Shown: positions 647 through 24,958 of the stretch, in pieces
Numbering within the stretch: position 1 is the first letter of the stretch
How the letters are laid out: each line of letters starts with the position of its first letter
Virus record (IMG/VR): IMGVR_UViG_3300048586_000159
Coordinates: 1-51,992 of that record
Source: a virus
Reading direction: 5' to 3' (one strand)
DNA: 51,992 bases
Program-made: the position numbers and the translations under genes
Notes under the pieces: model-generated
What the model was told of the DNA's origin: nothing
Database searches by the model: none
The model's input: only the letters and a program-made list of their open reading frames with translations

Positions 647-702
647 GATCGCTATCCTTCCAGATAGATAGCTCCTCGTTGGGGAGGAGTGTCCCGCCGC
701 CG
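647..702 (-). promoter_or_regulatory. Structured serC leader RNA (serC-motif-like), containing attL
   Basis: On the minus strand two stem-loops follow each other without a gap: CTCCTC-cccaac-GAGGAG (672-689) and CTATC...GATAG (652-671). The second includes the GGAAGG ribosome-binding site, so folding could control translation. Position, gene and layout fit the 'serC motif', a conserved candidate cis-regulatory RNA described upstream of serC in Alphaproteobacteria. I recognise it by pattern and have not run a covariance model. The loop of the first hairpin lies within the 29-bp att repeat. Confidence 0.7.
674..702. repeat. attL: 29-bp direct repeat, left end of prophage
   Basis: Identical over 29 bp to 51252-51280, with the flanking bases diverging at once. 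The repeat covers the start of the serC leader, including most of its first hairpin, CCTC-cccaac-GAGG in the minus reading. A short dyad with a 6-7 base centre is the usual shape of a tyrosine-recombinase core, normally supplied by a tRNA anticodon arm. Here the leader hairpin appears to supply it. Confidence 0.93.
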
Positions 703-17208: not shown

Positions 17209-17796
17209 CTAGTCCAGCCAAGCCCAGCATTCTCTTCGTTGCGTTCGAGTGATCGTGGAATGGGAAACACCAAAACGCTCCGCCATCTGACGGGTACTAA
17301 GGCTCTGCGAAGACCTGCGGATTTCCCGCACGTCATCTTCAGTAAGTTTGGAGTGCTTCAACGCCGTGCCGCGCAGGAGCGTACCGTGCTCCACTTTGTC
17401 GGCGTGGTTTTCAATCGTGGTCGCCCATCGCAAGTGCTTTGGGTTCACACATCCTTCGTCGCCTTTCCCACAGGAATGCGCTGCTTCGTGCTTGGGCGAC
17501 GGCGCTGGACCGTGAGCCATCTCGCACATCATTCTGGCTGCTGTAGTGGACTGACCATTGGGCTTCTTTAACGCCCCGTAGCCGCTGACCGTTCTACCAA
17601 ACGGCCATTGAAGGCAACCATCGCCATGGTAAGAAACGTTTTCCTCAAGCCACTTTACCAAAGTGCCATTGGCTGGCTTGTGCACAATGTTGCAGTCTCC
17701 GTATCGCTGCCAGCGACGGTAGTGCATCCCGCACCATCCGCGCTTTTCAGCGGGCTTGCAGCAATTGTGAATCGAGCATAGACGGGCATTAGCCAT
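17209..17796 (-). CDS. HNH homing endonuclease, zinc-finger type (cassette 1)
   Basis: 195 aa from MANARLCSIHNCC; an ATG 12 bp upstream is less well placed relative to GGAGG. The N-terminus has a zinc-finger-like module (CSIHNCCKPAEKRGWCGMHY). The HNH core is AHSCGKGDEGCVNPKHLRWA, and the C-terminus is a helix-turn-helix (LTEDDVREIRR...MAERFGVSHSTITR) ending in W-A-W-L-D. It sits between tail tube and gene G. The leader and hairpin upstream are shared with three other HNH genes here, and it is a clear paralogue of the gene at 19352. Confidence 0.9.
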   Translation of the reverse strand: MANARLCSIHNCCKPAEKRGWCGMHYRRWQRYGDCNIVHKPANGTLVKWLEENVSYHGDGCLQWPFGRTVSGYGALKKPNGQSTTAARMMCEMAHGPAPSPKHEAAHSCGKGDEGCVNPKHLRWATTIENHADKVEHGTLLRGTALKHSKLTEDDVREIRRSSQSLSTRQMAERFGVSHSTITRTQRRECWAWLD

Positions 17797-17868
17797 TTCG
17801 ACCTCCACAACAGGTTGGCTTGGTTAGAGCCCGTCGAGAGGTGAGATGCTCGACGGGCTTGCTTTTTA
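17797..17868 (-). repeat. HNH cassette leader module, copy 1
   Basis: In the minus reading: A-rich stretch, 11-bp hairpin AGCCCGTCGAG / CTCGACGGGCT (17828-17859) with loop CATCTCACCT, then CTAACCAAGCC, AACCTGT, GGAGG and ATGGCT. The same order occurs at three other HNH genes. No T-tract follows the stem in the direction of the genes; the T-rich side is on the plus strand. Confidence 0.75.
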
Positions 17869-17896
17869 TACCTGATGGGTGGAAGTAGAGGAAGCC

Positions 17897-18686: not shown

Positions 18687-19109
18687 TCACTGGTTAAAGG
18701 ATACGTATTCGACGGACACGGGCACCTGGACGTAGCCCACGTCCTGCAGCGGTGATGCTACGTATGGCTTGCGGCCGATCTTCACCTTGATGCCCTGTCC
18801 TTGGAGGACGGTGCCCTTGGCGAAATGCTTGATGATGCGGTCGGCCACGTCGAGCGGCTTCGTGATCCCGGCCCCGGCCTTCCACCAGACCGAAATCTGT
18901 AGGATGCCTATGTGCTGCTGATGCCCCGAGCCCACTGTCCGCGTGATTGTGCGGTTGGGAACGAAAGTGGCTTGCAGGTAGCTATCCGGCTTCGTGCCGC
19001 CATTGGGAGGGAAGTTTACCCCAGGATATGCGATCGGAAGTGCCGGAGTGAGCGCCGCCAGCTTGCCGAGGAGCAAATCCATGATGATTGCGTCCGTGCC
19101 TACGGCCAT
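18687..19109 (-). CDS. Tail terminator-like protein
   Basis: 140 aa from MAVGTDAIIMDLLLGKLAAL with GGAACC upstream; a longer reading to 19151 has a poorer start. Alpha-beta protein (ISVWWKAGAGITKPLDVADR; VQVPVSVEYVSFNQ at the end) resembling the gpU/DUF4128-type tail terminators that cap the tail tube. Its order upstream of the tube gene fits. Confidence 0.75.
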   Translation of the reverse strand: MAVGTDAIIMDLLLGKLAALTPALPIAYPGVNFPPNGGTKPDSYLQATFVPNRTITRTVGSGHQQHIGILQISVWWKAGAGITKPLDVADRIIKHFAKGTVLQGQGIKVKIGRKPYVASPLQDVGYVQVPVSVEYVSFNQ

Positions 19110-19122
19110 GCTACCGGTTCCT

Positions 19123-19320
19123 ATGCCTTCAAAGCCGCCGCTCACACGCAACGAGGTTTACGATCTCATCCACGATCTGTGGGTGAGAGCCGCACGCGAG
19201 CGAGGGGCTGATGAATACAGCGAGAACACCCTGAAGGCGGTCCGCGTGTCGTTGTTTATGCTAAGCGCTGCATTGCTCAAGAAGACCGATGACGACGCTA
19301 CAGCCCAAACCGAGCTTTGA
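19123..19320 (+). CDS. Small plus-strand hypothetical protein
   Basis: 65 aa (MPSKPPLTRNEVYDLIHDLW...) with codon choice like a real gene: a helical, charged protein. It is antisense to the structural genes, in the 190-bp gap between the tail terminator start and the displaced gp10 remnant, and its last codons overlap that remnant. No clear ribosome-binding site. It could be a small cargo gene; it could also be chance. Confidence 0.35.
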   Translation: MPSKPPLTRNEVYDLIHDLWVRAARERGADEYSENTLKAVRVSLFMLSAALLKKTDDDATAQTEL

Positions 19321-19348
19321 CCTCTGCGGCCTTAGCCGAGACGATCTG
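19298..19348 (-). pseudogene. Displaced original 3' end of the gp10-like gene
   Basis: Sixteen codons plus TAG, encoding QIVSAKAAEVKARFGL, directly behind the HNH stop codon. The intact gene (20374-20829) ends in QIVSAQAASVKQRFGL. Thirteen of 16 residues agree, but 10 of those 13 use different codons. The remnant has no start and is cut off from the rest of the gene by the HNH cassette. It marks the insertion point and shows that the cassette supplied a new gene end. Confidence 0.85.
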
Positions 19349-19351
19349 CGA

Positions 19352-20284
19352 CTAAATCAACCAACCCCACCGCCGCCCTCTTGCAATGTCAGATACAGTT
19401 ACGCGGCTAACACCAAATCGATTTGCGATCTTACGCTGCGTCTCATGTCCAAGAAGCTTACGAATGGCGATAACATCGTCCTCGGTGAGTTTAGCCTGAC
19501 CATTTCGGGATCCTTTGTTTTCCGTACCATGAATTACTCGGTCATCCGCGTTTCCTTGAGTGGTATCCCACCGCAAATGATGTGGGTTAACGCACCCTAA
19601 ATGACCTTGCCCGCAGTTATGCGCCGCTTGATGCGTTGGCGATGGTGGATCCCCGTGCACCAGTTCGCACATCACTCTGTGAGCATAGCGCTCGCCACCG
19701 TCTGACCCACGAAGCTTTCCATACCCGCGACCGCCGCGCTTGGGTTCGTGCCTTGCGAATGGCCAGATCAAACAATCATCAGTATCCGCGTGATCAGCAT
19801 GACTCCTGAGCCATAAATCAGGCTCTCCTTTCGACGTTGCCCCCGCAGTTGCGTCACCGTACCGCAGCCACCGTTCATAATGATCACGACAGTAGCCTCG
19901 CACATGCGCTGGCGCATTGCAGGCGTCGATGCTGCACAGGCCGGAATTCTCGGCGTAATATTTCCCGCCTAGTGGATTGCCGTGATTTCTGAAGCGCTGG
20001 TAGTGCGGGTTGCAAAATCCCTTATGCTTGACCGGACGCTCACACCCGTCAACGGCGCAAGGAACGTCTTTTGGTTGATAATGCGCTCCTCCATTAGGCG
20101 AACCGTGCCTTAGAAGCCGCAGATAGTGCGCGTGGCAAAGACCCTTAGTTCTGGCCTTTTCTAGGCAACCATCTGTCGAACATAAGGGCATTTCACGAAG
20201 GGCATGATAGTGCGTAACGCACCACCCTCGGGCTAAAACAGGCTTGCAGCAACCATCAATTTTACATAGGGAATTAGTAGCCAT
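19352..20284 (-). CDS. HNH homing endonuclease with multiple zinc-finger-like repeats (cassette 2)
   Basis: 310 aa from MATNSLCKIDGCC with GGAGG upstream. The N-terminal ~150 residues carry four Cys/His repeats of the form C-x3-(G/A)C...(G/Y)-(W/L/F/Y)C-x2-HY (KIDGCC, STDGCLEKARTKGLCHAHY, AVDGCERPVKHKGFCNPHY, SIDACNAPAHVRGYCRDHY), probably DNA-binding fingers. The HNH core is HNCGQGHLGCVNPHHLRWDT. A C-terminal HTH (LTEDDVIAIRKLLG...IANRFGVSRVTVSDI) ends in W-G-W-L-I. It follows the gp10-like gene and is followed by that gene's displaced old 3' end. Confidence 0.92.
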   Translation of the reverse strand: MATNSLCKIDGCCKPVLARGWCVTHYHALREMPLCSTDGCLEKARTKGLCHAHYLRLLRHGSPNGGAHYQPKDVPCAVDGCERPVKHKGFCNPHYQRFRNHGNPLGGKYYAENSGLCSIDACNAPAHVRGYCRDHYERWLRYGDATAGATSKGEPDLWLRSHADHADTDDCLIWPFARHEPKRGGRGYGKLRGSDGGERYAHRVMCELVHGDPPSPTHQAAHNCGQGHLGCVNPHHLRWDTTQGNADDRVIHGTENKGSRNGQAKLTEDDVIAIRKLLGHETQRKIANRFGVSRVTVSDIARGRRWGWLI

Positions 20285-20356
20285 TTCGACCTCCGAACAG
20301 GTTGGCTTGGTTAGGGCCTCGCGGTGTTGACGCACCGTTTGAGGCCCGTTTATTTT
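20285..20356 (-). repeat. HNH cassette leader module, copy 2
   Basis: Same order as copy 1: A/T-rich start, two-part hairpin (outer GGGCCTC/GAGGCCC 20314-20320 with 20341-20347, inner CGGTG/CACCG), then TAACCAAGCC, AACCTGT, GGAGGTCGAA, ATGGCT. The stem sequence differs from copy 1 while leader and layout are kept. Confidence 0.75.
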
Positions 20357-20373
20357 ACGAAACAATCCCCTTA

Positions 20374-20829
20374 TTACAAGCCGAAACGCTGCTTCACACT
20401 AGCGGCCTGAGCCGAAACTATTTGCTGCCATCTCTGCGCAACGAGCGTCACCCACGGTCGCGGTGCCATATCCTGGGTGCCGAAGTGGACGTAGGCCCCA
20501 TATTCGGCCGTGTAGCCGAGATAAATCGTATCCCCCAGCTCAGCATCGCTGATGATCAATTCGGTCTGGCTGAAGTCCGGAGTGACTGTCACGCCCGGGT
20601 TAGACCGGTTCAAGGTGGGCATGCTGGCATTCGAAGCCATGATCGAGTCCCGGAGGAACTGGGTTCGCTTGTAGTTCGGGCTCTCCGGTGTCTCGTAGAT
20701 CATGCTCCCGAGCTGCTCATCCAGTTGCTTCACAAGCTCCTGAAGGCTCTCCTGAAAGACCGCCTCTTCGGCTTCCTTCACTCGATTGACGAAATTCCCG
20801 ATGGTTGCGGAGAACGAGAGCTTAGCCAT
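20374..20829 (-). CDS. HK97 gp10-like head-tail/tail completion protein
   Basis: 151 aa. The segment TIYLGYTAEYGAYVHFGTQDMAPRPWV is the hallmark of the HK97 gp10 family of neck/tail-completion proteins (Y-A...HFG...P-R-P). The final 16 residues are protein-similar to the fossil end at 19298-19348 but encoded with other codons, so the current end was probably brought by the HNH cassette. The stop of this gene lies 16 bp from the cassette's A-rich leader start. Confidence 0.88.
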   Translation of the reverse strand: MAKLSFSATIGNFVNRVKEAEEAVFQESLQELVKQLDEQLGSMIYETPESPNYKRTQFLRDSIMASNASMPTLNRSNPGVTVTPDFSQTELIISDAELGDTIYLGYTAEYGAYVHFGTQDMAPRPWVTLVAQRWQQIVSAQAASVKQRFGL

Positions 20830-22057: not shown

Positions 22058-22711
22058 CTACCCAAGCCACCTCCATGTCTTCTGGTTAGCAACGACAAAG
22101 GCCGTCTGATAATGGATGCCAAACCGCTGAGCCATTTCAGCGTAAGGTACTCGTCCCTTATTCTCCCGCATCCATCGGACGTCATCCTCTGAGAGCTTCG
22201 AGCAATGGATGCCATCACCTTTAGGCATCGTCCCATGGTCATACTTGTCCATGTGGTTGGGCGACCTCTAAGGCTGCATCTGGAGCGCAGCCATGCGCCA
22301 ACTCGCACATAACGCGATGAGCGCCCGTCTGCCTGCCTTGGTAGGTGACTGCTCCATACCCGCCGACTGCCCCGCCATAAGGCCACAGCAAGCAGTCATC
22401 GCCATCGTGGGTGACGTGGTCCTCTATCCAAGCAATCAATGCCCCCGGTGAGGCCCGCCCACCAAGTGGCTCCCCATGGGCGCGTAGGCGCTGATAATGC
22501 CGACTGCGGCATGCCTCCCGTTGCCTACTGCGACCTTAACCGTGAACGTGCGGCTTTTTTGCTTACGCGCTGTTAGGATCTTCGGAACTTTGGGTCTTGG
22601 CCTGTTGGGACCGGAAGGCCGCCAGCTTCTTATCCGGCCGAGACTGCTGGCCTCATACCCATCATAACCCTCTACAGGGCGCCATTCTTCTGCTAGAGCG
22701 TGATCAGCCAT
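22058..22711 (-). pseudogene. Decayed HNH homing endonuclease (cassette 3), frameshifted and lacking the HNH core
   Basis: Three fragments in different frames. 22711-22436 starts MADHALAEEWRPVEGYDGYE, a NUMOD4-type start. 22439-22239 continues with IEDHVTHDGDDCLLWPYGG...RVMCELAHG, matching the middle of cassettes 1 and 2. 22252-22058 has MDKYDHGTMPKGDGIHCSKL and a HTH ending W-R-W-L-G. At the join of the last two, the Cys/His HNH core seen in the paralogues (NCG...GCVNP.HLRW) is missing. So the gene is a chimera of two endonuclease types, inactive by frameshift and deletion. Confidence 0.8.
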
Positions 22712-24436: not shown

Positions 24437-24958
24437 TTATGCTGGGCGGAAGAACTGCCCGTGGTGCTTGACTGCGAAAGCATCTCTCGCACGGGCCGCC
24501 TCTTCGGCTGTGTCAAAAAGTCCGAGGTTCACTCGTCTTCCGCCCGCCCTTGCTCTGGCCAACCATTTCCCTGATCGGCGGTCGAAATTGACGCCCTTGA
24601 ACCCGCTGGTGTTGCTGCTCTTTAGGGGGAGGTTCGCGTTATTCTCGCGCGGTGTGGCTAAGCGAAGGTTCGCGAACCTGTTGTCCCGCTTGTTGAGATT
24701 GACGTGGTCGATCTGCTGTTTCGGCCATTTGCCTGTCATGTAAAACCATGCAAGCCGATGCGCATAATATCGATGCCCGTAAACGCTTACGCGCCAATAC
24801 CCATGGACGCCAAAGCCGCCTGCATCTGTACCGGCAACTCGCCTATGTGAATTTGTTATCAGCCACCGAAACTCGCCGCCAATTGGATCGTACTCAAGAG
24901 CTTCTTTCAGCTTCGATTGCGTAAGATCGCGCGGGGCGATAATCTCGCATTCAGCCAT
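24437..24958 (-). CDS. HNH homing endonuclease with AP2-like domain (cassette 4)
   Basis: 173 aa, MAECEIIAPRDLTQSKL, with AAGGAGG upstream. The HNH core runs YYAHRLAWFYMTGKWPK, IDHVNLNKRDNRFANLRLAT; the C-terminal NTSGFKGVNFDRRSGKW is AP2-like. It is a relative of the plus-strand gene at 1956. It lies between the major capsid gene and its terminator, behind the common hairpin-leader module. Confidence 0.92.
   Translation of the reverse strand: MAECEIIAPRDLTQSKLKEALEYDPIGGEFRWLITNSHRRVAGTDAGGFGVHGYWRVSVYGHRYYAHRLAWFYMTGKWPKQQIDHVNLNKRDNRFANLRLATPRENNANLPLKSSNTSGFKGVNFDRRSGKWLARARAGGRRVNLGLFDTAEEAARARDAFAVKHHGQFFRPA

What the first reader, a model, noticed from the sequence alone, without database searches (positions are those of the whole stretch)
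19298..20430. HNH cassette that replaces and recodes the 3' end of the gene it invades
Behind the HNH stop lies an orphan 16-codon gene end (QIVSAKAAEVKARFGL) that corresponds to the end of the gp10-like gene on the other side of the cassette (QIVSAQAASVKQRFGL). Thirteen of 16 residues agree, but 10 of those 13 use another codon. The simplest reading is that the cassette inserted near the 3' end, brought its own recoded end to keep the essential gene intact and cleavage-resistant, and pushed the old end downstream. This is the logic of a natural gene drive with a rescue segment; a similar event is known from a fungal mitochondrial atp6 gene.
Basis: partly seen in the sequence, partly recalled or inferred. 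Interest (0 to 1): 0.88.

Follow-up and report, generated by a model that had tools for sequence, protein, structure and literature searches.

The report
Phage homing cassette that swaps gene ends
A selfish DNA-cutting gene in a phage has inserted next to a head-tail gene and given it a substitute last stretch, leaving the gene's old ending stranded behind the insert; similar swaps at either end of other genes recur in related phages, which suggests a natural counterpart of 'home-and-rescue' gene drives.

Summary
Behind the HNH stop lies an orphan gene end that matches the end of the gp10-like gene in 13 of 16 residues, 10 of them with another codon. The orphan is the native end in its native place: a cassette-free relative runs from this gene straight into the neighbour that the orphan still touches, and the orphan is closer in DNA to orthologous ends than the gene's present end is. 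'Recoding' is ordinary divergence between phage lineages. About ten HNH cassettes among some 180 examined show the same arrangement, at 3' or 5' ends and in both orientations. Rhizobium phage RHph_Y25, against its cassette-free relatives RHph_N2 and RHph_Y1_10, shows at nucleotide level that the stranded end is the native one, with the switch to native DNA inside the orphan. Best reading: HNH homing cassettes that insert together with a foreign gene end, as yeast WHO elements and fungal mitochondrial mobile ORFs do. I found no report of this in phages (open-access literature only). Cleavage, resistance of the new end and active homing are inferred, not shown. The cassettes also share a two-hairpin leader without an Rfam match.

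The parts
20425..20829 (-). body of the gp10-like gene (tail completion / Neck1, HK97 gp10-like connector)
   Evidence: ORF 20374-20829; PHROG 169 tail completion or Neck1 protein, NCBIfam HK97-gp10 below cut-off; 60-70% identical relatives
20374..20424 (-). present (substitute) end of the gp10-like gene, QIVSAQAASVKQRFGL-stop
   Evidence: lower third-position GC and rare codons than the body; less like orthologous ends than the orphan is
20281..20358 (-). cassette leader: -10-like box 20348-20358, hairpin 20314-20347 abutting CTAACC, hairpin with ribosome-binding site 20281-20303
   Evidence: shared by many HNH cassettes; arm-swapping test; coordinates
19352..20284 (-). HNH endonuclease gene, 310 aa: four zinc-knuckle-like modules, HNH_3 domain, C-terminal helix-turn-helix region
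   Evidence: Pfam HNH_3 E 0.00089, below curated cut-off; several PHROG HNH families; alignment A5; model pLDDT 84.6
19298..19351 (-). orphan: displaced native end of the gp10-like gene, S-QIVSAKAAEVKARFGL-stop
19126..19320 (+). small convergent ORF overlapping the orphan; its homologue in cassette-free L002 overlaps the gene end
18687..19124 (-). tail terminator gene, next gene in the native order
   Evidence: Pfam Phage_tail_terminator_5 E 1.9e-30; PHROG 179

Best explanation
An HNH homing cassette (leader plus HNH gene) of Rhizobiales phages entered the 3' end of the gp10-like connector gene together with a piece of the same gene from another phage lineage. The gene is now a chimera: resident body plus foreign end. 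The resident end was cut off and remains behind the HNH stop, still touching its old neighbour. Proposed mechanism (inferred): the HNH protein cuts near the gene end in cassette-free phages during co-infection; repair from the cassette-bearing genome uses the homologous gene body on one side and the orphan end on the other, so the recipient receives a divergent, presumably uncuttable end together with the HNH gene. Shown: the chimeric arrangement, the native origin of the orphan, recurrence in other phages, one present/absent pair. Not shown: cleavage, resistance, transfer.
For: Orphan is native by position and by DNA similarity. Differences between the two ends are mostly silent, so both evolved as coding sequence in separate lineages. 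Ten cassettes with the same arrangement at 3' or 5' ends, in either orientation, against controls. RHph_Y25 versus RHph_N2 and RHph_Y1_10: orphan DNA identical to the native end except for seven mismatches in its first bases, then 1-4 further mismatches in about 1.5 kb, which places the switch point inside the orphan as expected for a homology arm. Same anatomy in WHO elements and mitochondrial mobile ORFs (PMC7282813; PMC3630166). HNH reading frame intact with conserved motif residues.
Against: No cutting site is known and no close relative of the window phage with or without this cassette was found. Most HNH cassettes of the family (about 95%) show no stranded end. In RHph_Y25 about 650 bases of the RHph_N2 arrangement are also missing, and the gene with the new end is a neighbour of the gene whose end is stranded, so that event was larger than a simple end swap. 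Geometry varies between cases.
Confidence: 0.7

Rival explanations
1. Ordinary phage mosaicism: two related phages recombined near a gene boundary, one of them already carrying an HNH gene there. The duplicated end is a by-product of an unequal exchange, and the HNH protein played no part.
For: These phages are highly mosaic; RHph_Y25 and RHph_N2 differ in many blocks, and the Y25 event replaced more than a gene end.
Against: Strict matches across HNH genes are enriched over control intervals (4/178 vs 1/1116), and the copies lie at the HNH gene boundaries. Mosaicism alone does not predict this.
Confidence: 0.22
2. Target-site duplication on insertion of the cassette, followed by drift of the unused copy.
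For: A duplicated stretch flanks the insertion.
Against: A drifting non-coding copy would not keep 13 of 16 residues while changing 10 of 13 codons, nor match orthologous ends better than the used copy does. In RHph_Y25 the orphan is the unchanged native sequence.
Confidence: 0.03
3. Remnant of an intron or split gene in which the orphan is the downstream exon.
For: HNH genes are common in phage introns (general knowledge).
Against: No intron family in the Rfam scan of the window. The gene has its own complete end and stop upstream, so nothing needs splicing. Related cassettes lie between genes or antisense to them.
Confidence: 0.03

Closest known systems
WHO elements of Torulaspora and Lachancea yeasts (Coughlan et al. 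2020, PMC7282813)
   Same: Endonuclease gene next to a full-length chimeric host gene whose 3' end came with the element; old 3' end pushed behind the endonuclease gene and proposed as second homology arm; resistance through allelic sequence differences.
   Different: Yeast nuclear FBA1 and intein-zinc-finger endonucleases of the HO/VDE kind there; phage genes and HNH proteins here; 5' ends and several target genes here. Allele-specific cutting was shown there, not here.
Mobile ORFs with hybrid genes in fungal mitochondria (Allomyces atp6; Glomus atp6, atp9, cox2, nad3; PMC3630166)
   Same: Inserted foreign C-terminal part in frame with the native gene, endonuclease ORF, displaced native C-terminal part; the two copies differ mostly silently (63.5% DNA, 91% protein identity in Glomus atp6).
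   Different: LAGLIDADG or GIY-YIG endonucleases in mitochondrial DNA; no HNH, no phage leader.
Free-standing phage homing endonuclease genes (T4 seg and mob genes, PMC2988022; Skunavirus HNH genes, PMC12724721)
   Same: Stand-alone endonuclease genes near gene boundaries, co-conversion of flanks, recipients protected by donor sequence; T4-type genes also have hairpins over the ribosome-binding site.
   Different: Passages read there do not describe a stranded native gene end or a substitute end.
Synthetic home-and-rescue gene drives (HomeR, PMC7968924; abstract seen)
   Same: Logic: the drive cuts an essential gene and carries a version of it that keeps it working.
   Different: Engineered CRISPR system; here the divergence is natural and the drive is inferred.

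Membership tests
WHO element | Full-length chimeric host gene, endonuclease gene, displaced gene fragment in this order | tested here: met
WHO element | Intein-like HO/VDE endonuclease fused to a zinc finger, targeting FBA1 | tested here: not met
   HNH protein of other families and a phage connector gene. Works like a WHO element, is not one.
WHO element | Allele-specific cutting of the host gene | not testable with these tools
   needs the purified protein
Fungal mitochondrial mobile ORF hybrid gene | Substitute end in frame with the gene and displaced native end behind the endonuclease ORF | tested here: met
   definition from PMC3630166
Fungal mitochondrial mobile ORF hybrid gene | LAGLIDADG or GIY-YIG endonuclease in mitochondrial DNA | tested here: not met
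   HNH family, virus record
Free-standing phage HNH homing endonuclease gene | HNH motif in an intact open reading frame outside introns | tested here: met
Free-standing phage HNH homing endonuclease gene | Presence/absence difference between otherwise near-identical genomes | tested here: inconclusive
   met for the RHph_Y25 cassette; no near-identical relative found for the window cassette
Free-standing phage HNH homing endonuclease gene | DNA cutting and biased inheritance | not testable with these tools
   needs enzyme assays and crosses
Group I intron with HNH gene | Intron RNA around the HNH gene and an interrupted host gene | tested here: not met
   no intron family in Rfam scan; host gene complete upstream

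The most novel reading that the evidence does not exclude
Rhizobiales phages carry a phage counterpart of the WHO class of homing element: HNH cassettes that home into either end of structural and replication genes, bring a divergent uncuttable gene end as rescue, and use the stranded native end as second homology arm. Variable numbers of zinc-knuckle modules may set the target, and a shared two-hairpin leader may control expression.
Probability: 0.42. Interest if true: 0.8.

Novelty: new variant of a known kind. Interest (0 to 1): 0.68.

Why it matters
It would extend a homing architecture known from yeasts and fungal mitochondria to phages and HNH enzymes, and to 5' as well as 3' gene ends. 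It offers a concrete reason why phage genes can change abruptly near their ends beside HNH genes, and a natural system of rescue-type gene drive that can be tested directly in laboratory crosses of Rhizobium phages.

Tried and rejected
Special recoding: rejected, codon sharing is ordinary. Target-site duplication and intron remnant: rejected (see rivals). A generic score scan of HNH flanks was too noisy alone (z >= 4: 14/183 vs 8/179 controls); replaced by strict ungapped matches with controls and inspection of reading frames. Apparent duplications in L163 and L278 are neighbouring HNH cassettes, the one in L137 is spurious. Megablast and blastn of the window region against phages: no match. 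HNH relatives in 298 bacterial genomes of one order: only 4 genomes. PDB profile search: none; Foldseek: only weak matches, I-PpoI first at E 0.058. RNAalifold on the unadjusted leader alignment recovered 6 pairs, all with two-sided changes; an arm-swapping test was used instead. The HNH cassette at 17209-17793 showed no stranded end. Literature searches for phage cases of substituted gene ends: none found, in an open-access library only.

Full report
Observation. The window is a virus record. Its structural genes lie on the minus strand: portal, major head protein, MuF-like head protein, gp10-like connector, tail terminator, major tail protein. Between the gp10-like gene (20374-20829) and the tail terminator gene lies an HNH gene (19352-20284). 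Directly behind its stop, 19298-19351 reads SQIVSAKAAEVKARFGL-stop, against QIVSAQAASVKQRFGL-stop at the end of the gp10-like gene: 13/16 residues, 3 of 13 codons shared, 65% DNA identity.

Which end is native. Relatives of the gp10-like gene were collected from viral contigs and bacterial genomes (Shinella, Aquamicrobium, Mesorhizobium and others). The close relatives (about 60-70% identical) carry no HNH gene behind this gene. In L002 the gene end abuts a small convergent ORF; its homologue in the window (19126-19320, +) overlaps the orphan, not the gene's present end. The orphan is more like 34 orthologous ends (mean 0.63) than the present end is (0.54; orthologues are not independent). The present end has lower third-position GC than the body and carries codons that are rare at those positions in relatives, such as AGA and ATA. 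So the orphan is most likely the native end and the gene's present end the newcomer.

Is it recoded? The two ends differ as orthologous ends of different phages do: codon sharing among 213 pairs of orthologous ends averages 0.43 (SD 0.17), and 13% are as low as 3/13. Divergence suffices. Because changes are mostly silent, both copies evolved as coding sequence and were brought together afterwards.

Recurrence. About 180-190 HNH genes of the same broad family were examined for a divergent copy of one gene piece on both sides. Besides the window, verified by reading frames: L129, where a primase-like gene is bracketed by two HNH cassettes, one at each end; L263, Rhizobium phage RHph_Y25; L282 and L229; L201; L296 and L293; L113. 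They comprise sense and antisense HNH genes and 3' and 5' ends. In the clearest cases the stranded copy remains joined to its native neighbour; in the two sense 5' cases it is fused to the start of the HNH gene. Pooled, 98 of 150 residues and 46 of those 98 codons agree. Strict matches (at least 10 of 14 residues) occur at 4/178 HNH genes versus 1/1116 control intervals. The weaker cases rest on frame and position rather than score, and a looser score gave little excess over controls.

Present/absent pair. RHph_N2 and RHph_Y1_10 lack the RHph_Y25 cassette (EVC10_028). Over 1534 bases on the downstream side RHph_Y25 differs from RHph_N2 at 5 and from RHph_Y1_10 at 7 positions, three of them within the orphan. 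The native gene end in both, and more distantly in RHph_I1_23, is ...DPSAQREWERQRKERGE-stop; the Y25 orphan is identical in DNA from GAGTGGGAG onward, while seven mismatches cluster in its first 18 or so bases. On the other side of the HNH gene Y25 has a divergent version (...DPNAQREWQRQRKDG-stop; 83% DNA identity over 71 positions). The switch to native DNA therefore lies inside the orphan, as expected if the orphan served as a homology arm. Caveat: about 650 bases of the RHph_N2 arrangement, including one small gene, are also missing in Y25, and the gene that now carries the new end is a neighbour of the one whose end is stranded.

Cassette anatomy. Many cassettes share a leader: a -10-like box, a long hairpin ending at CTAACC, and a second hairpin holding the ribosome-binding site. 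Outer-stem arms match within a leader far more often than between leaders (41/73 vs 12% with 6/6 pairs) with many different stems, and 41 of 42 leaders can form the second hairpin. Rfam has no match at gathering score. The window HNH protein has four zinc-knuckle-like modules before its HNH domain; relatives have fewer. The structure model is confident (pLDDT 84.6), with I-PpoI as a weak best solved match.

Mechanism. Most likely an HNH homing cassette that travels with a gene end. Shown: chimeric gene, displaced native end, recurrence, one present/absent pair. Inferred: cutting near the native end, resistance of the substitute end, copying through gene body and orphan as the two arms. This is the model proposed for WHO elements (PMC7282813), where the endonuclease cuts FBA1 allele-specifically; the mitochondrial hybrid genes (PMC3630166) show the same anatomy. 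The phage cassettes are not WHO elements (different endonuclease family) but appear to work like them. The main rival is plain mosaicism with the HNH gene as passenger (0.22).

Novelty. The T4 and Skunavirus passages read and keyword searches gave no phage report of stranded native ends with substituted ends; the library is open-access only, so this does not prove absence. I file it as a new variant of a known kind.

Noticed in passing
window 20281-20358 (-) and 17813-17870 (-); leaders listed: HNH cassettes of Rhizobiales phages share a leader with a -10-like box, a covarying hairpin abutting CTAACC and a covarying hairpin over the ribosome-binding site; no Rfam family matches at gathering score.
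   Followed up: partly
window 22058-22711 (-): Decayed HNH gene in pieces over several frames (N-terminal part EEWRPVEGYDGYEASSLGRIRSW, HNH part, C-terminal helix-turn-helix) with the same ribosome-binding-site leader.
   Followed up: partly
window 24437-24958 (-): A further HNH_3 plus AP2 gene between the major head protein gene and the next gene; no stranded end detected.
   Followed up: partly
L129 2725-5180: A primase-like gene bracketed by two HNH cassettes, each with a second divergent copy of the adjoining gene end.
   Followed up: partly
window 19352-20284 (-); relatives in alignments A2 and A5: The number of zinc-knuckle-like modules in front of the HNH domain varies (four in the window protein, one or two in others), which may set target choice.
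   Followed up: no
window 647-699 (-): serC leader RNA (Rfam RF00517, 68.4 bits) near the left end of the record; may mark host DNA at the edge of a prophage.
   Followed up: no
L067 4340-5300, L029 3000-4030, L056 3000-4030: Other HNH cassettes at the gp10-like/tail terminator and MuF-like/gp10-like junctions, with the HNH stop overlapping or close to the next start codon and no stranded end.
   Followed up: partly
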